The notes under the pieces: generated by a model
The model's database searches: none
Seen by the model: only the letters and a program-made list of their open reading frames with translations
What the model was told of the DNA's origin: nothing
Source of the DNA: a virus
Strand: one strand, 5' to 3'
Virus record (IMG/VR): IMGVR_UViG_3300028553_000066
Span: 1 to 40,076 of that record
DNA: 40,076 bases
Position numbers and translations under genes: made by a program
Shown here: positions 1-18,667 of the stretch, piece after piece
How positions within the stretch are numbered: position 1 is the first letter of the stretch
Layout: each line of letters begins with the position of its first letter

Positions 1-180
1 TCCAAATTACCCAAAGTTTCAATTTGGGTATTACCTAAATTCAAATGACCCCCAACTGATTCCAAATTACCCAAACTTTTAATTTGGGTATCTCTTAAAT
101 ACAAATCCCTACCAACAGATTTAAGATTACCCAAACTTTTAATTGGGGTATTACCTAAATTCAAATCACCACTAATATAA
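1..180. repeat. 60-bp tandem repeat coding LRR units
   Basis: Three consecutive 60-bp units begin at 1, 61 and 121 and align without gaps. Each codes one 20-residue leucine-rich repeat of the minus-strand gene. The exact 60-bp register suggests expansion by unequal recombination or slippage. Confidence 0.85.
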
Positions 181-341
181 TAACCAGTATATATTCCACC
201 CTTCTTTTTATTAATATGTGTAAACATATTATCCCATTTATCAGAATCAGCATACATAAATGGAGTAAAATCTAACAGATTATCCTCACCCTCTGATTCA
301 ATAATCAATCTTAATTGTTCTTCAGTTATTATTAGTTTCAT
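1..341 (-). CDS. Tagged leucine-rich-repeat protein, C-terminus cut by window edge
   Basis: Read on the minus strand from ATG at 341 and open to the window edge, so the C-terminus is missing. The first 15 residues (MKLIITEEQLRLIIE) resemble the leaders of many other genes here and end in Ile-Ile-Glu. From about residue 55 the protein consists of roughly 20-residue repeats of the type LxSVGxxLxLxxTxIxSLGN, a leucine-rich-repeat pattern. Its start codon overlaps the stop of the upstream gene in an ATGA arrangement, so the two are probably translationally coupled. The repeats suggest a binding surface; the partner is unknown. Inference: a packaged or effector-like cargo protein. Confidence 0.75.
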   Translation of the reverse strand, partial: MKLIITEEQLRLIIESEGEDNLLDFTPFMYADSDKWDNMFTHINKKKGGIYTGYYISGDLNLGNTPIKSLGNLKSVGRDLYLRDTQIKSLGNLESVGGHLNLGNTQIETLGNL

Positions 342-991
342 AGATATATCTTCCCTTCAACATTTATTTTACTTCTTAATTCTTCTTCAGTTGTATTTTC
401 TAATAATGGGGTATTACCTAAATATAATTCCTCACCAACAGATTCCAATTTTGGTAATGATTCTATTTTACTATAATTTAAATCCAAAAACCCACCAACA
501 GATTCTAAATTTGGTAATGAGTTAATTTGACTTCTTTCTAAATCCAAACTCCCACCAACAGATTCTAATTCTGGTAATTCACTAATCTTACTTCTTCTTA
601 AAGTCAAATTACGACCAACATACCTTAATTTAGGTAATGAACGAACATCAACCATTGATAAAAGCATATCACCAGTCACCACCCTTAATTTGGGGAAACC
701 AATGGTGTAATTATTAACAACCCTCAAATCCCCATTCACCTCAACCAGTTCATCACAAAATTCAACAACACCAAATCCAATCTTATTGCCAAACCCTCTA
801 CTAAAATCAATATTACCAAGTAACTTTATACCAACGAAATTCTTCTTCTCCTTCTCAGTATTGTATAAATCCAAAATATCATCAAAAGATTCCCCATCAA
901 CAATCATATCAATCGTAATTGTTAATAGTCTTTCCTTTTTTACCCCATTCTCAACAATCAACCTCAATTGGCTTTCATTTATTATTATCAT
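338..991 (-). CDS. Tagged leucine-rich-repeat protein
   Basis: 217 residues. It starts with MIIINESQLRLIVE, a short leader ending in Ile-Val-Glu like the tag on other genes here. Residues 20-100 form a domain I do not recognise. From about residue 117 to 200 there are about four 20-residue repeats of the type LPxLxSVGxxLxLxxSxIxS, a leucine-rich-repeat solenoid. It ends in a short charged tail and its stop overlaps the start of the next LRR gene by 4 bp (ATGA). The two LRR genes are clear paralogues, probably from duplication. LRR proteins normally mediate protein-protein contact; the target is unknown. Confidence 0.85.
   Translation of the reverse strand: MIIINESQLRLIVENGVKKERLLTITIDMIVDGESFDDILDLYNTEKEKKNFVGIKLLGNIDFSRGFGNKIGFGVVEFCDELVEVNGDLRVVNNYTIGFPKLRVVTGDMLLSMVDVRSLPKLRYVGRNLTLRRSKISELPELESVGGSLDLERSQINSLPNLESVGGFLDLNYSKIESLPKLESVGEELYLGNTPLLENTTEEELRSKINVEGKIYL
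421..660. repeat. 60-bp tandem repeat coding LRR units
   Basis: Four units in 60-bp register (about 421, 481, 541, 601), each with a conserved centre (accaacagattc or a variant) and variable flanks. They code the leucine-rich repeats of the 338-991 gene and belong to the same repeat family as 1-180. Confidence 0.8.
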
Positions 992-2484: not shown

Positions 2485-2967
2485 ATGTTTATGGAAAAAA
2501 AGGTATGTAAAAAGTGTGAGGTGAAAAAACCAGTAAGTGAATTTTACTTCAGAAAGGATACACAGAAATATAGGGCTGAGTGTACAGAATGTCATTTGAA
2601 ACAGAAGAAAGAGTATGGGGAAAAGAATAGAGATAAGAAGAATGAGTATATGAGACAATATAAGATAGACAATCCCACTAAGAACAAGGAGTGGAGGGAT
2701 AAAAATAAAGAACACGTTTTATCCAAATTAAAGGAGTGGAAAAGTAAAAACCCCCAAAAGGACAAAACAAATAAAAGAAACTCATATAAGAGGAAATTGA
2801 AAACTAATCCCATTTTTAGGTTACAAGAGAACATAAGAAGATTAATTAATTTATCATTTCAAAAACGTAATCTGAAGAAGGGTTGTAGCACATTTGATAT
2901 TTTGGGAATTGACATGGATGGGTTCAAAAAATATTTTGAAAGTAAATTCACAGATGGTATGGGGTGA
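2485..2967 (+). CDS. HNH-endonuclease-type protein, N-terminal part
   Basis: 160 residues. It begins with a zinc-ribbon pattern (CKKC near residue 8, CTEC near residue 35), followed by a long Lys/Asn-rich helical stretch and ends at FTDGMG. This order is typical of phage HNH homing-type endonucleases, where FTDGM is normally followed by the catalytic WxxxG...HIDH part. Here three in-frame stops (2965-2976) follow instead. The next 300 bp code the end of a different HNH class. So the gene has lost its nuclease domain, or was joined to a second, broken HNH gene. A host-type promoter precedes it, so it may still be expressed. A start at 2491 is also possible. Confidence 0.7.
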   Translation: MFMEKKVCKKCEVKKPVSEFYFRKDTQKYRAECTECHLKQKKEYGEKNRDKKNEYMRQYKIDNPTKNKEWRDKNKEHVLSKLKEWKSKNPQKDKTNKRNSYKRKLKTNPIFRLQENIRRLINLSFQKRNLKKGCSTFDILGIDMDGFKKYFESKFTDGMG

Positions 2968-3285
2968 TAGAAATAAGGGGGGGGTGAAATTAATAAGAAT
3001 GGTTATAGATTAGTATATTATAGAAATGAATCTAAATATAAACTAGAACATAGACATAATTACGAAAATTATTATAGTATAGAATTATTACCCCACCAAA
3101 ACATACATCATATAAATGGGATAAGGACTGACAATAGAATTGAGAATTTGGAGTTATGGGATACATCTCAACCTAAAGGACAAAAAATAGATGATAAGAT
3201 TAATTTTTATTTCAACTTATTGAAGGAATATAGGGAGCATCCATTATATAAAGAATTAATTGAGCAACAAATTGCGGAATTATAA
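2968..3285 (+). pseudogene. HNH_3-type endonuclease remnant without start
   Basis: In the same frame as the preceding gene but after its stops, codons 2977-3285 read like the end of an HNH_3-family nuclease: INKNGYRLVYYRN, LEHR, LPHQNIHHINGIRTDNRIEN and QPKGQKIDDK. These are the conserved GYR...EHR, VHHxNGxxxDNRxENL and QPxGQ blocks. No start codon serves this frame. The expected upstream residues (GDRNKGG) are found in the next frame, and the shift falls at a run of eight G (2977-2984); one more G would join them. It is therefore a frameshifted nuclease, or the run is a sequencing error. Confidence 0.7.
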
Positions 3286-3376
3286 TTTTCTCGTTATCAC
3301 TCGTATTCAATCCCCAGCCCCTTTTTTAATTTAAAAATATTTTGAGATTGATGGAACTAAATGGGGTGTTATGTGA

Positions 3377-4009: not shown

Positions 4010-4040
4010 ATTTCCCCCATCTTTGGTATTCAAATATAAT

Positions 4041-4048
4041 TATAAATA
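4041..4048 (+). promoter_or_regulatory. T4-late-like promoter motif TATAAATA
   Basis: TATAAATA followed by AAAA, 10 bp before the ATG at 4059. The T4 late promoter is the same octamer placed at -10. The same motif at a similar distance precedes several other tagged genes. The sequence is AT-rich, so a single copy proves little; the repeated position is the evidence. Confidence 0.45.
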
Positions 4049-4058
4049 AAAAATTGGT

Positions 4059-4850
4059 ATGAAGAGAATCATAAGATTAACTGAGGGGGACTTGGTTAAA
4101 TTAATTAAGAGGGTAATCAATGAGGGTGAGATAGATGAGATTGACATTGAGGGAACATATTTGGAGAAACCTAATACCGACTATTATAGGAAGAAGGAAT
4201 TGGATGATACTTTTGTAAAGGATTATGGTAATGTTTTCAAGGATGAGCCGATTACTCGTAGTAAGCCGTATGGATTGAAGTTCATAAATAAGGGTAACAA
4301 TTCATATGAGGTTATATTTCCCCCAAATTTTGGGATTAAGCATTTTCCATCTAGGGTTGATTTTGATTATAGTGGTTTATATGGGAATGAGCATTATGGT
4401 TTGGAGATTCCCGCAATGAAAAAAACAAATAGGGGAATAATAAAGAATGTTGATGAGATATTGAATGATTGGGGTGTTGTGATTGAAACTGAGGGTGAAC
4501 CTAGAAATAGGATACATTTTATTGGTGGGTTGCCATCAATTTTAATGGGAACTGGATTGGGTTATTTGATATATCAGGAGTTCATAAAATATTTGGGATG
4601 GGGTAGTTCAACTTCCAATGTCAGCGCGGAGTCTCAAAGAATTTGGACAAAACTTATTAAAGATCCTGATTTTTATAGTTTTTATATTGATGGTGAGATA
4701 TCATCAAGAATATTTGCAATATATAAGGGTACTGATAAAGACATTGTTAAAATTGTTGATGACAATTATACTGATGTTAATTTTATTAAATTTGATAAAG
4801 AATTATTAAATGATTATCCTGAATTAATAAAATATAAAAAAAATTATTAG
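4059..4850 (+). CDS. Tagged protein with possible GNAT-like domain
   Basis: 263 residues. It carries the clearest form of the leader, LTEGDLVKLIKRVINE at residues 7-22, ending in Ile-Asn-Glu before Gly. The body is unrecognised up to about residue 150. Then comes IHFIGGLPSILMGTGLGYLI, where the GTGLG turn followed by a helix resembles motif A of GNAT acetyltransferases, and SSTSNVSAESQRIWTKL follows. The acetyl-CoA-binding call is an inference from this motif alone. A TATAAATA motif lies 10 bp upstream. Its 3' end overlaps a second, orphan copy of the leader, pointing to recombination at this spot. Confidence 0.75.
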   Translation: MKRIIRLTEGDLVKLIKRVINEGEIDEIDIEGTYLEKPNTDYYRKKELDDTFVKDYGNVFKDEPITRSKPYGLKFINKGNNSYEVIFPPNFGIKHFPSRVDFDYSGLYGNEHYGLEIPAMKKTNRGIIKNVDEILNDWGVVIETEGEPRNRIHFIGGLPSILMGTGLGYLIYQEFIKYLGWGSSTSNVSAESQRIWTKLIKDPDFYSFYIDGEISSRIFAIYKGTDKDIVKIVDDNYTDVNFIKFDKELLNDYPELIKYKKNY

Positions 4851-4989
4851 ATTAACTGAGGGTGACTTGGTTAAATTAATTAAGAGGGTGATTAATGAGG
4901 GGGAAGAGGATGAGTTGGAGAAAATATTTAAGATATCCAGAGCTGATTATGAGCTGGCGGAGATGTTAATTAGTAATTACTATGGATGA
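4834..4989 (+). pseudogene. Orphan leader-tag copy without start codon
   Basis: A frame open from 4831 to the stop at 4987 codes KKIIRLTEGDLVKLIKRVIN, a full leader tag, followed by about 30 acidic/helical residues. The codon expected to be ATG reads ATA (4834). Over 53 bases (4849-4901) it matches the leader of the 4059 gene at 50 positions. The stop overlaps the ATG of the 4982 gene, which lacks a tag. The likely history is that the tag belonged to the 4982 gene and was separated from it by a frameshift and loss of the start. Confidence 0.75.
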
Positions 4990-5350
4990 GTTGTATCAAA
5001 AGATGGTTATCAAGATATTGGATAAATTGGGATTTATTGATATGGAAGAAGTGAGAATTATTGATAATAAAGAAACCATCCAAAACAATATCTTTGATAT
5101 CAAAGGGGAATTTTTGGTTTATTCAATAAAAGGTAAGAACTTTAAATATTTTGATGATAATTATTTGAGATTTCAGATTGAACTTGAAGGTAATTTAATA
5201 AATTTATTATTCTTCAATGAGAGTTATTCTGGGAAAGAGGTAGATTTTAATTTGAAATCAGAAATTTATAAATATATGTCTGAAAATTTGTATGACCCCT
5301 TATTTGAGGAGGGTATTGAACTAAAATTTGGGTATTTCATGTGGTTATGA
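4982..5350 (+). CDS. Uncharacterised protein, possibly truncated tagged cargo
   Basis: 122 residues from ATG at 4982. Not recognised. The composition is mixed alpha/beta, acidic, with many aromatic residues. An orphan leader tag lies immediately upstream in another frame and overlaps this start, so this is probably the body of a tagged protein that lost its leader. If translated from 4982 it would not be packaged by the proposed route. No clear start signal of its own is seen. Confidence 0.5.
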   Translation: MDELYQKMVIKILDKLGFIDMEEVRIIDNKETIQNNIFDIKGEFLVYSIKGKNFKYFDDNYLRFQIELEGNLINLLFFNESYSGKEVDFNLKSEIYKYMSENLYDPLFEEGIELKFGYFMWL

Positions 5351-5379
5351 TGATGTAACTGATGACTTTTATTAATATA

Positions 5380-5403
5380 ATCCCCATGTCTAAATAAGGT
5401 GTG
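5380..5403. repeat. 24-bp exact repeat, copy 1 (broken terminator)
   Basis: Identical to 7169-7192 over 24 bases. At 7169 the sequence is the left arm and loop of a good terminator; here the right arm is replaced by unrelated coding sequence. Just upstream, 5348-5364 also matches 6986-7002 inside the 6880 gene. The segment looks like a decayed, internally deleted copy of the 6880 gene and its terminator, and marks a recombination joint. Confidence 0.8.
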
Positions 5404-5578
5404 AAAATGGTAAATTCATAACTTATGATTCTGAGATAAGTGGCATTTTATTATCATTCAAGTTTTAAATGATAATAGATATAAATTAACATCAGCAAAT
5501 AATGATGGTGACGAGATAAAAAGTTGGGATGATATAATTAAGGTTGCTCCAGAATTAGCTGGGAAAAAGGATTTATTT
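5394..5578 (+). pseudogene. Frameshifted, start-less 5' part of the 5579 gene
   Basis: Codons from 5394 read protein-like sequence (ENGKFITYDSEISGILLSFK) to a stop at 5466. The frame of the next gene, read upstream of its ATG, continues LNDNRYKLTSANNDGDEIKS. One extra T in the T-run at 5463-5466 would join the two into a single frame. No ATG is present and the coding starts at the edge of the 24-bp repeat. So the gene at 5579 has lost its 5' end to recombination at the repeat and has also suffered a one-base deletion. Confidence 0.65.
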
Positions 5579-6400
5579 ATGTCTAGACCTATGACTGATA
5601 TTCAGTTGAAAAGGAGTTCTAAATTTTTGGATATGGCTACAGCCGGACAACCTAAAGGTTATCCACTTAAATTATCGGATGAAGACTTTGCGGAATTACC
5701 TTATATTGATAAAGAAGCTTATATTATTAATGTGGTTGAGAACCCTTATCAAAGCAATCCATTAACTGATAATCAATTTTTTAGTTTACCGGAGGATTTA
5801 AGAAATAAATATGTGAATTTGGTACGAACTTCAACGCATCCTAATTTTAAATTATCACCTAAATTGTTAAAACGTTATATTGATGTCTATAATAAGGCAT
5901 TTGAGGAACGAGTTTTACCTAAGATAAAGAATGATAAAGAAGATATTCTTAATTATTTACCACCCTGGGAATATAAATTTTTGAATGATGAAAATAAAAA
6001 GATTGCGGACGGATATTTGTATGAATCAATAAAGAATAAATTTAATTACTTGAAAAATCGTTTATCTAATAACAATAAATATAGTTTATGGAGTTACAAT
6101 TATATTGATAATGATTATAAATTTAATCAATTTATACGTACTAAATATAATACAATGTTAGAACATCCTGCAAGTATTTTTTATATAAAAAAATATATCC
6201 CAAAAGAATATATTCTCAATGATTTATCACTATTAAAACATATGATTTTTTATACATTATCAAAATCGGAGGATACTTTTGATGACTATATGAATTTTCT
6301 TGGGGCTGATTATAAAAAAGTCATATCAACTTTCAATAATGAGGAAAAGGAATTATATAATCAACTAATTTTAAAGATGTCCCCATATCCGATTGATTAA
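5579..6400 (+). CDS. Uncharacterised protein, 5'-truncated
   Basis: 273 residues from ATG at 5579, but coherent coding sequence extends upstream (see 5394-5578), so this ATG was probably internal (residues GKKDLFMSRPM). The product is Asn/Tyr/Lys-rich, mostly helical by eye, with phrases such as SDEDFAELPYIDKEAY and DNQFFSLPEDLRNKYVNLV that look like repeated units of about 40 residues. Function unknown. It may be a surviving fragment of a longer repeat protein. Confidence 0.55.
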   Translation: MSRPMTDIQLKRSSKFLDMATAGQPKGYPLKLSDEDFAELPYIDKEAYIINVVENPYQSNPLTDNQFFSLPEDLRNKYVNLVRTSTHPNFKLSPKLLKRYIDVYNKAFEERVLPKIKNDKEDILNYLPPWEYKFLNDENKKIADGYLYESIKNKFNYLKNRLSNNNKYSLWSYNYIDNDYKFNQFIRTKYNTMLEHPASIFYIKKYIPKEYILNDLSLLKHMIFYTLSKSEDTFDDYMNFLGADYKKVISTFNNEEKELYNQLILKMSPYPID

Positions 6401-6438
6401 TTAAAATGATTTTTTTGAACTATTGATAATGTCATATG

Positions 6439-6459
6439 GTTATATTAATATTGAATCAC
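6439..6459 (+). promoter_or_regulatory. Shared upstream element, copy 2
   Basis: GTTATATTAATATTGAATCAC, 16 bp before the ATG at 6476, resembles the element before the 3415 gene. It could be a phage promoter or operator. Confidence 0.35.
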
Positions 6460-6475
6460 ATTAAAATCTAATACT

Positions 6476-6883
6476 ATGATTGCGTTAATTGTTTTGGTTG
6501 TTATAATCTTGGGTGTATTTTTATTCAAGAGATTTTTGGATAAGCATGGGAAGTATATGCCATCCACATTATTGATAATGTTTTTGAAAAAGGTTAAGGA
6601 CATTGAGGAATTGGGTCATGGTGGTGTCATTATTCGGAAGGTTGGTAATTACAATGTAATTATCTTAAGTGAGGATGGAAAGATTGTTGATGCTATTAGT
6701 GTGGATATGGTTGATAACAAGATTTATTCTGGTGTGGTGAAGGACAACAAACCTGGTTTTGGTGACTTATTATTGCCAACTAGTTTACCTTATGGTTCTA
6801 AGGGTATTGATGAGTTGAGGGAGTTGGAGGATAAATTGGTTGATGAGGTTATTGATGTGATTGTTAAATATAAAATATTATGA
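6476..6883 (+). CDS. Small membrane-anchored protein
   Basis: 135 residues. Residues 1-18 form one hydrophobic segment (MIALIVLVVIILGVFLFKRF), a membrane anchor with the rest probably cytoplasmic because Lys/Arg follow it. The soluble part has alternating beta-like and acidic stretches, ending in a helix. Not recognised. Its stop overlaps the next ATG (ATGA at 6880), so the two are co-translated and may act together. Confidence 0.7.
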   Translation: MIALIVLVVIILGVFLFKRFLDKHGKYMPSTLLIMFLKKVKDIEELGHGGVIIRKVGNYNVIILSEDGKIVDAISVDMVDNKIYSGVVKDNKPGFGDLLLPTSLPYGSKGIDELRELEDKLVDEVIDVIVKYKIL

Positions 6884-7164
6884 ATTATTATGATTTTGAA
6901 TACGATGTTAATGAATTTCTGATAGTTAATCATTATTACATTAATCCAATGAGATTGGTGGAATTGGTTATTGAGTCATTTCTTGATGATGATGTAACTG
7001 ATGAGGTTATTAATAATTGTCTTATTATAAAATTGAAGGGTGTTGATTTGATTAAGGTATATCTGACGGATGATTATGGATATGACTATGGTAAAAATTC
7101 AATTGAGTATAATGCTCAGTTTTTTTTAAATAAGGGTTTGTGTGATGAACATTTAATTGGATAA
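6880..7164 (+). CDS. Small acidic protein coupled to membrane partner
   Basis: 94 residues, rich in Asp and Tyr, unrecognised. It starts inside the stop of the preceding membrane-protein gene (4-bp ATGA overlap) and ends just before a strong terminator. A 17-base piece of it (6986-7002) recurs at 5348-5364 beside the second copy of that terminator, so a related gene once stood upstream. Confidence 0.65.
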   Translation: MNYYDFEYDVNEFLIVNHYYINPMRLVELVIESFLDDDVTDEVINNCLIIKLKGVDLIKVYLTDDYGYDYGKNSIEYNAQFFLNKGLCDEHLIG

Positions 7165-7165
7165 T

Positions 7166-7200
7166 AATATCCCCATGTCTAAATAAGGTGTGGGGATATT
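7166..7200 (+). terminator. Terminator hairpin
   Basis: Stem AATATCCCCA / TGGGGATATT (7166-7175 and 7191-7200) with a 15-base loop. It ends the 6476-7164 pair. Its left arm and loop (7169-7192) are repeated at 5380-5403. Confidence 0.75.
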
Positions 7201-7208
7201 TCATTATG

Positions 7209-7236
7209 ACCATCTCGTCCATTTACACGAGATGGT
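7209..7236 (+). terminator. Second tandem hairpin
   Basis: Stem ACCATCTCGT / ACGAGATGGT (7209-7218 and 7227-7236), loop of 8, followed by TATTTATT. It lies directly after the previous hairpin and may be a back-up terminator or a processing site. Confidence 0.6.
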
Positions 7237-7296
7237 TATTTATTATAATCATATATTTGGGGGTTTATTAATATTTATTAATAAGAATTATAAAAA

Positions 7297-7935
7297 ATGA
7301 AGCGATTAATAATAATTGAAGGGGAAAAAATTGAGATTCTTTCATTATATAACTTGAGTGAGGAAACGTCAGTTCCGGGATATACTGGGATTACTGATTA
7401 TCCTGGTGATGCTTGGGAGTTTGAGAAACCATCATATTCTCCATTCATTAATTACCCTGACAATTGGCGTTTAATGTCATCTCAAGACAAATTGGTGTTT
7501 GTTGCAAAACAGATGGCTGAAAAGAAAATAGATGTATCAAGACAGCCAAAAGGAACAAAAGAGACAATTTGGAAGAATGTAACAGGACAAGAGGAGTTTA
7601 AATCTAATACTTGCGTTAAGGGGGTTTGTGACATATATAAAAATGCTGGGTTAACATCTGGAATTCCTACAGATGTTTTGGACAATAGAACATTTAAACA
7701 AAATCACGGACAATATGGGTATAAAATAGTTCCAAATAAAGAATTAAAACCTGGTGATTTGATTCAGTATGTTTGGTCTTCTGAAAATACGTATCCATAT
7801 CATATTGGGGTTTATGTAGGAAACAATGAATATGTTAGTGATGGGTCAGCTGATAAACCAATAATGAAACAAAATATATATAAAACGGAAGACGGTGAAA
7901 ATAAAGACCCGTTTATTGTTTATAGAAAAAAATAA
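7297..7935 (+). CDS. Tagged NlpC/P60- or CHAP-like cysteine peptidase
   Basis: 212 residues. The leader runs to about residue 22 (YNLSE, a Leu-Ser-Glu site). From about residue 100 there is a cysteine-peptidase pattern: SNTCVKGVCDIYKNAG with C106 as likely nucleophile (C111 nearby), then KPGDLIQYVW and PYHIGVYVG with H169 as the general base. This KPGDL...HIGxYxG order is typical of NlpC/P60 and CHAP enzymes that cut the peptide part of peptidoglycan. The tag suggests loading into the virion and wall cutting at entry rather than at lysis. Which bond it cuts cannot be told. The next tagged gene begins 4 bp after its stop. Confidence 0.75.
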   Translation: MKRLIIIEGEKIEILSLYNLSEETSVPGYTGITDYPGDAWEFEKPSYSPFINYPDNWRLMSSQDKLVFVAKQMAEKKIDVSRQPKGTKETIWKNVTGQEEFKSNTCVKGVCDIYKNAGLTSGIPTDVLDNRTFKQNHGQYGYKIVPNKELKPGDLIQYVWSSENTYPYHIGVYVGNNEYVSDGSADKPIMKQNIYKTEDGENKDPFIVYRKK

Positions 7936-7939
7936 AATT

Positions 7940-8359
7940 ATGAGAAGAATAATAAAATTAACTGAGGGTGACTTGGTGAGATTAGTTAAGAGGGTAATCA
8001 ATGAGGATGACTTTGAAATTAAATTAAAAAGTATCTTTGACAAATTTATGAAAAAATACACCGATTTAATTCAAGATGAAAAAGAATATGAGGATATAGA
8101 TTACAATATATATACCTCTCTTGTATTTTTTAAAAAAAATGAAGATGGTGACATTGATGAGGATGATTGGGAGGATGATTTATTTGTTTTCAAATTAATT
8201 CCAATTGATGATTATGGTAATGATTTATTATTGGAATATGACGTTATATTTTTCTCCCCCATTATGGGATCATTTGGTGATATGTTTGATTCTTTATTAA
8301 AGGAATGGTTTGAGGAACATTATAAATATAAAATTAGTAAAATATCTGGAGTGAGATAA
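7940..8359 (+). CDS. Tagged small acidic protein
   Basis: 139 residues from ATG at 7940; an upstream in-frame ATG at 7895 lies inside the previous gene and is not used here. The leader LTEGDLVRLVKRVINE ends in Ile-Asn-Glu before Asp. The rest is acidic with DEDDWEDDLFVFK in the middle and a short helical C-terminus. Unrecognised. Its size, leader and acidity resemble T4-type internal proteins, which are small and diverse. It follows the cysteine peptidase by 4 bp, so they are probably co-transcribed. Confidence 0.75.
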   Translation: MRRIIKLTEGDLVRLVKRVINEDDFEIKLKSIFDKFMKKYTDLIQDEKEYEDIDYNIYTSLVFFKKNEDGDIDEDDWEDDLFVFKLIPIDDYGNDLLLEYDVIFFSPIMGSFGDMFDSLLKEWFEEHYKYKISKISGVR

Positions 8360-8364
8360 AAATT

Positions 8365-8523
8365 ATGAAAAACAAATCAATTTGGGATTGGGATTTGTAT
8401 CATAAGATAAAAGGAACAAACAACTTAATTACCAACAAAATAAAAAAGGAAATGTTGGATGAAAATAATTTGAAAGAATTAATTAAACGAGTTATTGATG
8501 ATAATAAAAAATCCCAAAGATAA
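8365..8523 (+). CDS. Very small protein with tag-like C-terminus
   Basis: 52 residues from ATG at 8365 (MKNKSIWDWDLYHKIKG...). Its last 20 residues, NNLKELIKRVIDDNKKSQR, resemble the helix of the leader tag (LVKLIKRVINE), but here it is at the C-terminus. It sits 5 bp after the 7940 gene and before the next TATAAATA motif, so it is likely the last gene of a small operon. It could be a decayed tagged gene or a small partner of the packaging machinery. Confidence 0.5.
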   Translation: MKNKSIWDWDLYHKIKGTNNLITNKIKKEMLDENNLKELIKRVIDDNKKSQR

Positions 8524-10964: not shown

Positions 10965-11771
10965 CTACTCTTTTATTTTCTTGTAGTATTGTTGAGCTTT
11001 TCCTCGTTTAAGTGGAATCCCTTGTACTGCAACAGGATTATTACTACTAGCATAATACGCAAAACTATTACCTGGACCCGCGTTATAACGAAAAGCTTCT
11101 TGGAACGCTTTTTCAAAATCTGAAATACCTTTAATCGGTTTAAAATAACAAGCCAATGCTTTTGCAGCATATTTTGGGTCTTCCATTAATTCAGGTCTCC
11201 CAACAAAATCAATACCCGTACAATTTTTCGCTAATTCATAATTTCCCTTGAATGTGATTCCATTGAACCCTCTACCCACGTATTTATACCCTTCATTGGG
11301 GGCATTTCCGTGTTGTCCCCCATAAACAGCGTTGAAAAAATTCTCATTTGATTTTTTTAAGCCATCTAATTGGGGGTCAGTATAATTACTCACTCTTGCC
11401 CCAAAAATAGCCCTAATCCTATCATTTGATGTTGTCCCATAACCAGCTTCTTTGAATGTTTTAAAACCGCTCTCGCCTCCAACAACACCCATTACAGCCG
11501 CCGTAGCCTCATCAGTGAACCCATCTGTTTTTAATTGATTAAATACAATATTTTCATTGTCATTTAATTCTTTTATTGGGTCAGTTGGTGTACTTGAATT
11601 ACTTGAATTTGTTGTATCATCCTCACTTTTTTTATCGGACGAATCACTCTTAAACTTATTTACTAATTGATCTAAAGCTTGTAACGCTTTTGCAGAATCA
11701 ATCTCAGTTATATTATATAATTTTTTAATTTGATTGCGTTCTGATTCTGTTATTAAAAATTTGTTGTTCAT
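10965..11771 (-). CDS. Tagged GH19/lysozyme-like muramidase
   Basis: 268 residues. The leader (KFLITESERNQIKKLYNITE) ends in Ile-Thr-Glu at residue 23 and continues into IDSAKALQALDQLVNK, a stretch shared with the genes at 12210 and 12827. A Ser/Asp/Thr-rich linker follows (42-65). The catalytic part has AAVMGVVGGESGFKTF with E100 as likely general acid, and YKYVGRGFNGITFKGNYELA, the GRG...GNY block of GH19 chitinases and related phage lysozymes. The substrate is probably peptidoglycan. The tag suggests a virion-borne entry enzyme. Its stop is 1 bp from the convergent 10598 gene. Confidence 0.8.
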   Translation of the reverse strand: MNNKFLITESERNQIKKLYNITEIDSAKALQALDQLVNKFKSDSSDKKSEDDTTNSSNSSTPTDPIKELNDNENIVFNQLKTDGFTDEATAAVMGVVGGESGFKTFKEAGYGTTSNDRIRAIFGARVSNYTDPQLDGLKKSNENFFNAVYGGQHGNAPNEGYKYVGRGFNGITFKGNYELAKNCTGIDFVGRPELMEDPKYAAKALACYFKPIKGISDFEKAFQEAFRYNAGPGNSFAYYASSNNPVAVQGIPLKRGKAQQYYKKIKE

Positions 11772-11817
11772 ACTTTTATTTTATAAATATTTTAGAATAA
11801 TCAAAATATTTATAAAG

Positions 11818-12209: not shown

Positions 12210-12809
12210 TTAGGATATATAATCCCTTAATTCTAAATTCCAAGGTAATCCAATATGTACATGTTCAATGTCAGATGGATGACCTTCCCATTCTGAAATT
12301 TCACCAATAATATCACCGACATCAATTGTTTGACCTACTGTTAAGTTTACATTTTTTAAGTGAGTATAAAAAATATTTGGATATTCATCCGTACCTTTAA
12401 TTGAAATTCCCGTTCCATACACTTTAGAACGTTTTTGCCCATAATTTTTTATTTTAGTGACTATTCCTTTTGTTATTGACTCAACCTTTGTACCAGCTGG
12501 GGCGAATAAATCCCAAGCATTATCAGATTCCCAATTACCAAAAGCTCTTTTTTTATGTCCTTCATTTCCACCTTCTAAATCAACATTAAATTTATTTTTA
12601 AATTTTGGTTTGTAACCTTCTGGTTTTTTTATGTTTGAAACTTCAGTTTCTGTTGATGATGTAGTGTCAGTTGACATTAAACTAGCATCAGATTTATCAA
12701 CAAGTTTAATTAAAGCTTCTAATGCTTTTGCAGAATCAATCTCAGTTATGTTATATAATTTTTTAATTTGATTGCGGTCTGATTCTGTTATTATAAATTT
12801 CTTGTTCAT
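12210..12809 (-). CDS. Tagged M23-type endopeptidase, atypical site
   Basis: 199 residues. The leader and following stretch (residues 1-37) are nearly the same as in the 10965 gene. After a Ser/Thr linker, residues 85-190 form an M23 (LytM/lysostaphin) fold: WESDNAWDLFAPAGTKV, FYTHLKN and IEHVHIGLPW. D100, H150 and the HVH pair (H183, H185) are present. The His normally four residues before the Asp (HxxxD) is Asp here (D96), so zinc binding may differ or be weak. M23 enzymes cut peptide cross-links of the wall. The tag again suggests entry. It ends 2 bp from the convergent metallopeptidase gene. Confidence 0.8.
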   Translation of the reverse strand: MNKKFIITESDRNQIKKLYNITEIDSAKALEALIKLVDKSDASLMSTDTTSSTETEVSNIKKPEGYKPKFKNKFNVDLEGGNEGHKKRAFGNWESDNAWDLFAPAGTKVESITKGIVTKIKNYGQKRSKVYGTGISIKGTDEYPNIFYTHLKNVNLTVGQTIDVGDIIGEISEWEGHPSDIEHVHIGLPWNLELRDYIS

Positions 12810-12826
12810 GTTTTTTTTAAATTAAT

Positions 12827-14086
12827 TTACATTTCTTTTCCGTATTTCTTAAAGAATACTTCAGGCATCGAATTATGGTTGTATGAATTAGATGCAATTA
12901 ATTCAGAAGTCCCAGTTGATTCCATTTTATTCAATACATCTCTAACTGATGGGTATCCAGACCAGTTATTTCCCCTTGAAATCATTTTTACATTATTAGG
13001 TAAAGTCGTATATACTTGACTAATAAAGGGGTCAATCAAACCAATAAAATCATATTTACCTAAGTTCATGGCTTCAATTGTTTTAGGCCCACCTCCTGAA
13101 AACCCACTAACCGATTTAATTTTACCATTAGGATTAATTGATTTTAATTCTTGTTCAATACTTGATATTGGTATTTCATTATTAGCATAAATCATATTTT
13201 TGTTTAGTATTGACGCACCTTGTTCGTACATAAATTTAGCGCCATATTTACTACTAGGAGTTCCACCATAAACTAAACCATATTCATTTGAGGATGAATT
13301 TACTGTGTCAATAATCACACCTTGTTTACTAAACATTTTATCTGATTTTTTTTCACTCCTTTTAGTCGGGCTTTTACTTGGCATGTCTCCAATTCCTCCT
13401 TTATCTGTCACTGGGAATACAAATTCAATATGTACAGAACCATTACTTTTTTCTCTTAACACTTTTTTAATCCCTGAGTTACCTTTTTTCATTAATTTTT
13501 CGGCTGTTGATGCGAATTTTTCACTATATGGTGTTATATCAATAGCCAATCCAGATAAGTGATTACTCATTAATCCCCCACGTTTTTTATATCGGTCTTT
13601 TAAATAATCAGCATATTCTTGTTGAGTCATTTGTCCTGCTTTATATTTATCCCAAACTTGTACGACATCACTACCATACCACGCTCTAATGTTCTCTCTA
13701 CTATTTTGTAAATTAACCCTTGCTTGATCTTCGTATGTTCGTAATGTACTAGAAATTTTTAATTCTGGTGTATCGGCTTCAGTAAAAATACTTTTTAATA
13801 ATTTTTCAGCATCTTTATTTAATTTAATAGCGTTGGGAAAATAATTTAATGTTATTGAGTCGGCGTTAGGGTGAACAAAATAATCTTTAGTATTGACATT
13901 TGTATCTAAATTAGTGGCTGATGACGAATCCGAACTACTTGACGAATCTGAACTACTTGAAGTAGTTGATTTATTTACTAAATCCTCAAGACCTTTTAAG
14001 GCTTTATTTGAGTCTATTTCATTTAATCTATATAAATGTCTAATATGTTTTTTGTCTTCTTCAGTAATTAAAAGTCTTTTCATCAA
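12827..14086 (-). CDS. Tagged M15 peptidase fused to alpha/beta hydrolase-like domain
   Basis: 419 residues. The leader (LLITEEDKKHIRHLYRLNE) ends in Leu-Asn-Glu at residue 23, followed by IDSNKALKGLEDLVNK and a Ser/Asp linker (40-58). Residues 80-225 read as an M15 D-Ala-D-Ala/L-Ala-D-Glu peptidase: STLRTYEDQARVN, SNHLSGLAIDIT (H176, D183) and SVHIEFVFP (H219, E221), the full zinc set. Residues 255-419 form a second domain with SVSGFSGGGP (S330 in a nucleophile elbow), IDPF (D352) and SYNHNSMP (H404), a candidate esterase/lipase-like triad. So one polypeptide may carry two lytic activities. It is the third enzyme with the same N-terminal module. Confidence 0.8.
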   Translation of the reverse strand: MMKRLLITEEDKKHIRHLYRLNEIDSNKALKGLEDLVNKSTTSSSSDSSSSSDSSSATNLDTNVNTKDYFVHPNADSITLNYFPNAIKLNKDAEKLLKSIFTEADTPELKISSTLRTYEDQARVNLQNSRENIRAWYGSDVVQVWDKYKAGQMTQQEYADYLKDRYKKRGGLMSNHLSGLAIDITPYSEKFASTAEKLMKKGNSGIKKVLREKSNGSVHIEFVFPVTDKGGIGDMPSKSPTKRSEKKSDKMFSKQGVIIDTVNSSSNEYGLVYGGTPSSKYGAKFMYEQGASILNKNMIYANNEIPISSIEQELKSINPNGKIKSVSGFSGGGPKTIEAMNLGKYDFIGLIDPFISQVYTTLPNNVKMISRGNNWSGYPSVRDVLNKMESTGTSELIASNSYNHNSMPEVFFKKYGKEM

Positions 14087-14114
14087 ATATTTTTATTATA
14101 AATATCCCTAAAAA

Positions 14115-18001: not shown

Positions 18002-18625
18002 TTAATGTTGCTTAGTTCCTACTTTTTGTTCAACACCCTTAATTCCTCCATATTTTACTGGATTTTTATGGACATGAGCTGTCAGTGGTGAATCTGTTAA
18101 TTCAGGATTCGCATCTAAAAAGGATTTGAAGAAATCAATCAGACAAAGAACTAATGACTGTAAAGTTGCAAGTCCAACAATACCATCCGCCCATTCTGTT
18201 TTACCACTGTCAGTTTCTAGTTCATTCTGTCCTTTGGCTTTAGATAAAACTAATTTTTGAAATTTTACAACACATTTATCTTCAGGAGTTATTCCTTGAG
18301 CGACACACAAATCTTGTATTTTTTTAAACATTTGATTAGTTGTCCTACTCACTTTTGACATTTCTTGTTGAAGTGTAGTATTAAGTTGGTTTAAATCCCT
18401 TAAAAACCCACCCAATGTTCCTGTTTTACTATAAGTTGCGTAATCGCTACCACTAATTAACATACTGATAACATTTCTTAACCTAACAATAATATCTGAA
18501 CATTGAGAATCGGCTCTCATCTCAGCAAATATTTGTCCCATTACTGAGGGTGTTTGGTTTTCCTTAATAACTCTTTTTACTAATCTGATTAAATCGGATT
18601 CTGTTAATCTTATAATTTTTTTCAT
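18002..18625 (-). CDS. Tagged protein of unknown function
   Basis: 207 residues if started at the ATG at 18625; a second in-frame ATG at 18637 only repeats MKKI before the tag. The leader LTESDLIRLVKRVIKE ends in Ile-Lys-Glu before Asn. The body is helical with several Cys (QCSD, DLCVAQG, DKCVV, LVLCLIDFF) and a hydrophobic stretch around residues 160-175. The C-terminus is basic (HKNPVKYGGIKGVEQKVG). Unrecognised. The doubled MKKI start suggests slippage or start-site drift at the tag. Confidence 0.75.
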   Translation of the reverse strand: MKKIIRLTESDLIRLVKRVIKENQTPSVMGQIFAEMRADSQCSDIIVRLRNVISMLISGSDYATYSKTGTLGGFLRDLNQLNTTLQQEMSKVSRTTNQMFKKIQDLCVAQGITPEDKCVVKFQKLVLSKAKGQNELETDSGKTEWADGIVGLATLQSLVLCLIDFFKSFLDANPELTDSPLTAHVHKNPVKYGGIKGVEQKVGTKQH

Positions 18626-18667
18626 AATTTTTTTCATAATTTTTTGATAATTGATTTTATTATATCA

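What the first reader, a model, noticed from the sequence alone, without database searches (positions are those of the whole stretch)
4074..8008. The tag is also a DNA-level cassette that moves between cargo genes
Bases 4074-4126 and 4849-4901 are identical at 50 of 53 positions, although the coding sequence on either side differs; the tag at 7955-8007 is a further relative. The copy at 4849 sits without a start codon directly after one cargo gene and before another that lacks a tag. A conserved leader with unrelated bodies gives short homology tracts that could let recombination swap cargos.
Basis: partly seen in the sequence, partly recalled or inferred. Interest (0 to 1): 0.7.

Follow-up and report, generated by a model that had tools for sequence, protein, structure and literature searches.

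The report
Phage leader where cargo genes swap
A group of large T4-like viruses of bacteria starts many unrelated proteins with the same 22-residue leader, and comparing related viruses shows that different genes have repeatedly been exchanged behind this leader, so it acts as a common socket for swapping proteins that are probably packed into the virus head and injected into the host.

Summary
In detail: 4074-4126 and 4849-4901 match at 50/53 (shuffled windows reach 32-34), and 7955-8007 matches at 47/53. The 4849 copy lost its start codon (ATG to ATA at 4834). G010 carries the 7940 leader with 0.7 kb of upstream DNA at 97%, but identity stops 20 nt past the leader and the cargo is gone; the same cargo sits in G006 behind a different leader. 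Next to a conserved phosphoesterase, five cargo families and an empty site alternate. In 118 IMG/VR stretches, upstream homology entering tagged genes stops within the first 110 nt in 141/175 cases, against 62/617 for untagged genes, peaking at the leader end. 192 tagged genes have about 140 unrelated bodies. Related records encode T4-type prohead protease and gp23, and the leader ends in a gp21-like site, so it is most likely a capsid-targeting propeptide. The exchanged unit is larger than the leader (5' region plus leader), and many crossovers cannot be placed exactly inside it. This resembles T-even internal-protein loci and PeSL shuffling on a much larger scale: a new variant of a known kind.

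The parts
4059..4124 (+). Leader copy 1, MKRIIRLTEGDLVKLIKRVINE
   Evidence: identical at 66/66 to the G006 ortholog, 59/66 to the G010/G004 orthologs
4125..4850 (+). Cargo body of leader 1; orthologs in five phages, no Pfam or PHROG match
   Evidence: mosaic of G006-like and G010-like sites
4040..4058 (+). AT-rich box TTATAAATAA and start region, shared with G006 but not with G010/G004/G011
4834..4899 (+). Leader copy 2, orphan, start codon ATA instead of ATG; frame open to 4989
4837..4845 (+). Junction tract AAAAAAATT, common to the 3' end of the preceding gene and the 5' end of a leader; homology with all five relatives ends here
4982..5350 (+). Untagged ORF directly behind the orphan leader, no relative found in 11 related records
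5381..5403 (+). 5' part of a hairpin element, 3' arm lost (another junction)
7166..7201 (+). Intact copy of the same hairpin (terminator-like), reused in G006
7940..8005 (+). Leader copy 3, MRRIIKLTEGDLVRLVKRVINE; 65/66 to G010:7865
8006..8359 (+). Cargo body of leader 3; absent behind the G010 leader, present in G006 with another leader
18560..18625 (-). Leader copy 4, MKKIIRLTESDLIRLVKRVIKE, at the locus with five cargo families and an empty site
18002..18559 (-). Cargo body of leader 4, replaced in G006, G002, G011, L201; absent in G010 and L202
18705..19424 (+). Conserved metallophosphoesterase gene used as flank for the allelic series
   Evidence: PF00149, 3e-15

Best explanation
These are cargo genes of a T4-like phage group whose N-terminal leader is most likely a capsid-targeting propeptide: it would carry proteins into the prohead and be cut off after the conserved Glu22 by the phage's gp21-type protease. 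The 5' region (probably promoter and 5'-UTR) and the leader together form a conserved DNA module of about 100-130 bp that recurs in front of unrelated genes. Homologous or short-homology recombination between these modules (and at other repeats, hairpins and A-tracts) swaps, inserts or removes cargo bodies while keeping reading frame, expression and packaging signal. The leader at 4849 is a stranded module that lost its ATG at such a junction. Shown: shared leader, unrelated bodies, junctions at the module, swapped and empty alleles, gp21/gp23 homologs in related records. Inferred: packaging, cleavage, injection, and that the phage's own recombination machinery does the exchange.
For: W7940 leader plus 0.7 kb upstream 97% identical to G010, ending 20 nt past the leader; that cargo in G006 starts right after a different leader. 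G010:5363 and G004:14609 share 2.4 kb at 94% ending inside the leader, bodies unrelated. G010:10158 and G004:18090 share 1.07 kb at 97.8% ending at the leader start, with the 68-bp end also present before the next tagged gene in G004, as expected for insertion or pop-out of one cargo between repeats. Phosphoesterase locus: five cargo families or none. Statistics: breaks in the first 110 nt 141/175 tagged vs 62/617 untagged; turnover 122 swapped to 12 kept vs 404 to 380; peak of block ends at +60 to +75, 33/122 vs 4/404; 21 of 23 distinct cargo pairs have no body homolog in the partner's next 3 kb. L123 repeats a 68-bp exact tract (tRNA-Leu 3' end, 5' region, leader start) before two unrelated cargos. 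W4059 is an intragenic mosaic: 13/13 informative sites G006-like from -23 to +71, last 11 G010-like (runs p 0.0004). Leader identity in swap pairs 0.83 vs 0.73 for unrelated pairs. gp21 (PF03420) and gp23 (PF07068) in G001, G007, G010; gp23 of G010 has LINE before ATADG and the preceding scaffold-like ORF ESLNE, resembling the leader end VINE.
Against: Leaders are alike through protein conservation, so alignments can run through them even when the crossover lay upstream; in some pairs (L166/L032) flanks are 97-100% identical but the leaders only about 82-91%. No virion proteomics or cleavage data. Gene turnover is also high for untagged genes in these regions (404 of 784). No RecA/UvsX match over the cut-off in eight long records. 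All sequences are metagenome contigs; a chimeric assembly at single junctions cannot be excluded.
Confidence: 0.75

Rival explanations
1. Whole tagged genes, with their own leaders, are replaced by crossovers in intergenic DNA; the leader resemblance is only protein-level conservation and plays no part in the recombination.
For: Leader identity is below flank identity in several swaps (L166/L032, L049/L067); cargo turnover is also common for untagged genes.
Against: W7940/G010 keep 65/66 of the leader and 20 nt more while the body is gone; the W7940 cargo has another leader in G006; G010:5363/G004:14609 switch inside the leader; L123 repeats non-coding DNA plus leader.
Confidence: 0.2
2. The three TEGDL copies are an ordinary tandem gene duplication whose bodies diverged beyond recognition.
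For: Copies 1 and 2 stay weakly alike for about 24 nt past the leader.
Against: Bodies in the same genome show no similarity while the 66-nt leaders are 83-88% identical in DNA; orthologous bodies are 91-94% identical between phages, so body divergence is not fast enough; the syntenic comparisons show abrupt junctions.
Confidence: 0.04
3. Exchange is driven by a dedicated enzyme, for example HNH homing endonucleases near the loci or a tRNA-directed integrase, rather than by the leader homology.
For: HNH gene remnants beside the locus in the window (2485-3282, PF13392) and in G010 (5913-6461, PF13395 below its cut-off); tRNA fragment at the L123 repeat.
Against: Swaps are spread over many loci and records with no common target sequence seen beyond the module itself; presence of endonucleases at the other loci was not checked.
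Confidence: 0.08

Closest known systems
T-even phage internal proteins (IPI, IPII, IPIII) with capsid targeting sequence
   Same: Short N-terminal peptide as the only conserved part of otherwise unrelated proteins, cut by a gp21 protease, variable between related phages (PMC3012670, PMC9026906, PMC12373910; Repoila et al. 1994 cited there, not held).
   Different: Leader here is 22 residues with its own sequence (MKKIIRLTESDLxRIVKRVIxE), 3-17 copies per record in nine IMG/VR records of 60-304 kb, about 140 cargo families in the sample, probable Bacteroidota hosts; packaging not demonstrated.
PeSL cassettes (promoter early stem-loop) of T4-like phages, Arbiol 2010 and Comeau 2014, as cited in PMC4503421
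   Same: Repeated regulatory DNA with stem-loops between shuffled genes, mediating modular exchange; hairpin copies occur here too.
   Different: The shared tract here runs through the start codon into a coding leader, so that exchange also keeps a protein targeting signal.
T4 short-homology recombination
   Same: T4 recombines at homologies of 2-10 bp (PMC9391042), so a 66-bp leader or the 9-bp A-tract at 4837-4845 would suffice.
   Different: No recombinase was identified here.

Membership tests
T4-type capsid targeting sequence / internal protein | Same short N-terminal peptide on proteins with unrelated bodies | tested here: met
   192 tagged genes, about 140 body families; the 90-member alignment is conserved only in the first 22 columns
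T4-type capsid targeting sequence / internal protein | Peptide ends in a gp21-type cleavage site (L/I)xE | tested here: met
   Glu22 in 90% or more, preceded mostly by VIx; a sequence match only, cleavage not shown
T4-type capsid targeting sequence / internal protein | Phage encodes gp21-type prohead protease and gp23 capsid | tested here: met
   PF03420 and PF07068 over cut-off in G001, G007, G010; the other eight records are shorter fragments without a match; the window itself was not searched with these models
T4-type capsid targeting sequence / internal protein | Sequence homology of the leader to the T4 CTS | not tested
   No T4 IP sequence was aligned; the 24-aa leader had no tblastn match in the phage collection
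T4-type capsid targeting sequence / internal protein | Protein found inside virions, processed and injected | not testable with these tools
   Needs virion proteomics
PeSL regulatory shuffling cassette | Stem-loop terminator repeated between shuffled genes | tested here: met
   Hairpin at 7166-7201, -17 kcal/mol, z -3.6, truncated copy at 5381, copy in G006
PeSL regulatory shuffling cassette | Early promoter next to the stem-loop | tested here: inconclusive
   A TATTTAT box is enriched before tagged genes (64% vs 26%, around -21); its promoter class is unknown

The most novel reading that the evidence does not exclude
A promoter-plus-leader module serves as a general docking port across a lineage of large Bacteroidota phages: any gene that recombines in behind it becomes expressed with the head genes, packaged and injected, giving each phage an interchangeable load of injected proteins drawn from a shared pool.
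Probability: 0.5. Interest if true: 0.78.

Novelty: new variant of a known kind. Interest (0 to 1): 0.62.

Why it matters
T-even internal proteins are a handful of injected anti-restriction factors sharing one leader. Here the same principle appears in uncultured phages on a scale of well over a hundred cargo families, with visible exchange junctions. The leader is a search tag for probable injected proteins, almost none of which match known domains, and so a list of candidate counter-defence genes. It also makes the question of how phages trade such genes testable, because junctions can be counted at a defined 66-bp sequence.

Tried and rejected
PHROGs and Pfam on the window cargos gave nothing usable apart from NlpC/P60 for 7297-7935. 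The leader alone had no match in the 50,697 named phage records, and Flavobacterium phage immuto and Rhodothermus phage RM378, among the nearest isolates by gp23, have none. No intact relative of the orphan leader's gene (4834-5350) was found in 11 related records. The structure prediction of the 4059 protein was of low confidence (pLDDT 45), so no fold search was made. A RecA (PF00154) search gave only sub-threshold matches. Codon-level conservation alone was considered as proof of a DNA cassette and set aside: the excess is real but modest (0.62 same record, 0.56 other records, 0.49 expected), and leaders of orthologous 4059 genes are no better conserved than their bodies, so there is no sign that the leader DNA is itself under special constraint. 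Block-end statistics were repeated with longer flanks and per unique gene to limit double counting; the tagged/untagged difference stays (33/45 vs 36/254 genes at 200 bp or more upstream).

Full report
OBSERVATION. The full leader is 66 nt (22 codons). The 4849 copy begins in frame at 4834 with ATA in place of ATG and runs to a stop at 4989, overlapping the start of an untagged ORF. A fourth leader lies on the minus strand at 18560-18625. Most identity is due to the shared peptide, but the three TEGDL copies also agree in synonymous codons (z 2.0 to 3.1), unlike the fourth.

RELATIVES. A degenerate-DNA scan of IMG/VR gave 11 stretches in 10 records; further scans gave 99 more stretches and further orthologs. 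Four records are close, syntenic cousins: G004, G006 (with its near-duplicate G009), G010 and G011. I collected 192 tagged genes whose bodies fall into about 140 families. Of 90 representatives almost none match Pfam, PADLOC or PHROGs; exceptions include one thioredoxin, one GNAT acetyltransferase and one glucosaminidase. In the 90-member alignment only the leader is conserved.

JUNCTIONS IN THE WINDOW. (A) 7940: 789 bp of window DNA (7237-8025) is 97% identical to G010 and includes the upstream NlpC/P60 gene and the whole leader; identity stops 20 nt after the leader, and G010 continues with a nearby stop codon and then an untagged gene. The window's cargo occurs in G006 at 55% protein identity, aligned from the third residue after the leader, but there it starts MRIEKTIKIILRE. 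So: same leader without the cargo, and same cargo with another leader. (B) 4059: orthologs in five phages end at the same place (window 4845) and are followed by different DNA in every lineage except the G010/G004 pair; in the window the follower is the orphan leader, joined within AAAAAAATT, a tract common to the gene end and to leader starts, which removed the ATG. Within this gene, all 13 informative sites from -23 to +71 are G006-like, then four are G010-like, and the last 11 are all G010-like (runs test p 0.0004). (C) The hairpin copy at 5381 has lost its 3' arm compared with the intact copy at 7166-7201, so the 4834-5400 stretch looks like a zone of exchange scars. (D) At 18625 (minus) the divergent phosphoesterase gene is conserved, and behind the leader position stand five cargo families in different phages; G010 and L202 have no cargo there.

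JUNCTIONS ELSEWHERE. G010:5363 and G004:14609 share 2.4 kb at 94% that ends inside the leader. G010 and G004 share 1.07 kb at 97.8% that ends at the leader start of two different cargos, and the shared end is repeated before the next tagged gene of G004, as expected for insertion or pop-out of one cargo between repeats. In L123 a 68-bp exact repeat, running from the 3' end of a tRNA-Leu through the 5' region into the leader start, precedes two unrelated cargos in one genome.

STATISTICS. Among blastn blocks that enter a gene from upstream, 141 of 175 at tagged genes end within the first 110 nt, against 62 of 617 at untagged genes. With blocks of 200 bp or more reaching the start region, tagged genes are swapped in 122 cases and kept in 12; untagged 404 and 380. 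Block ends of tagged swaps peak at +60 to +75 (33 of 122; untagged 4 of 404). 21 of 23 distinct cargo pairs have no homolog of the body in the partner's next 3 kb. Limits: pairs are not independent; leaders resemble each other, so the alignment end marks the downstream limit of the crossover, not its exact place. Leader identity in swap pairs (0.83) is above that of unrelated pairs (0.73) but not always equal to the flank, so part of the crossovers fall upstream of or inside the leader.

MODULE. Upstream of tagged ATGs a TATTTAT box around -21 is found in 64% against 26% for untagged genes, and upstream DNA is more alike among tagged genes of one record than between tagged and untagged (record grouping merges a few close relatives such as G004 and G010). 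The shared unit is therefore 5' region plus leader. That the box is a promoter is inference.

FUNCTION. G001, G007 and G010 encode the T4-type prohead protease and gp23. The leader's near-invariant Glu22 preceded by VIx fits the gp21 rule, and the G010 head genes carry similar sites (FLINE before ATADG in gp23; ESLNE in the preceding scaffold-like ORF). In T4 the first 10 residues of IPIII suffice for packaging (PMC9026906), and the internal proteins share only this leader (PMC3012670, PMC12373910). A capsid-targeting propeptide is thus the best reading, not proven. Nearest named capsids include those of Flavobacterium phage immuto (38%) and Rhodothermus phage RM378 (33%), so hosts are probably Bacteroidota; a published set of large freshwater Bacteroidetes phages with prohead proteases (PMC9723584) may overlap this clade, untested. 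The leader was not found in immuto or RM378.

VERDICT. It is a larger and differently built version of a known principle, T-even internal-protein loci combined with PeSL-like shuffling.

Noticed in passing
11656-11788, 12694-12826, 13971-14103 (minus strand): A second leader type (M..KFLITESERNQIKKLYNITEIDSAKAL) is shared as DNA, 86% and 68% over 133 nt, by three genes whose later parts look different; same behaviour as the tag studied here.
   Followed up: no
2485-3285: HNH endonuclease gene apparently split into two frames (PF13392 hit in 2980-3282), next to the exchange region; G010 has an HNH-like ORF at 5913.
   Followed up: partly
8365-8523: Small ORF whose C-terminus resembles the leader (LKELIKRVIDDNKKSQR*), conserved in G010 at L046:13756; L079 has a full leader motif at the C-terminus of a protein.
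   Followed up: no
L123:4119-4193 and 4840-4870: tRNA-Leu gene and, 0.7 kb on, a fragment of its 3' end, each followed by the same 5' region and leader; the contig stretch holds ten tRNA genes.
   Followed up: partly
18608-18637 (minus): ATGAAAAAAATT is tandemly doubled at the start of the fourth leader gene (MKKIMKKII), not in the G004 ortholog.
   Followed up: no
3278-3333 and relatives: Intergenic element CTCGTTAT..ATCAATCCCCAGCCCCTTTTT stands before different genes in window, G010, G006 and G004; a further repeated tract in the shuffled region.
   Followed up: partly
1-991 (minus): Two genes with ITES-type starts and 60-nt repeats that look like leucine-rich-type repeats, with many copies in G010 and G004.
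   Followed up: no
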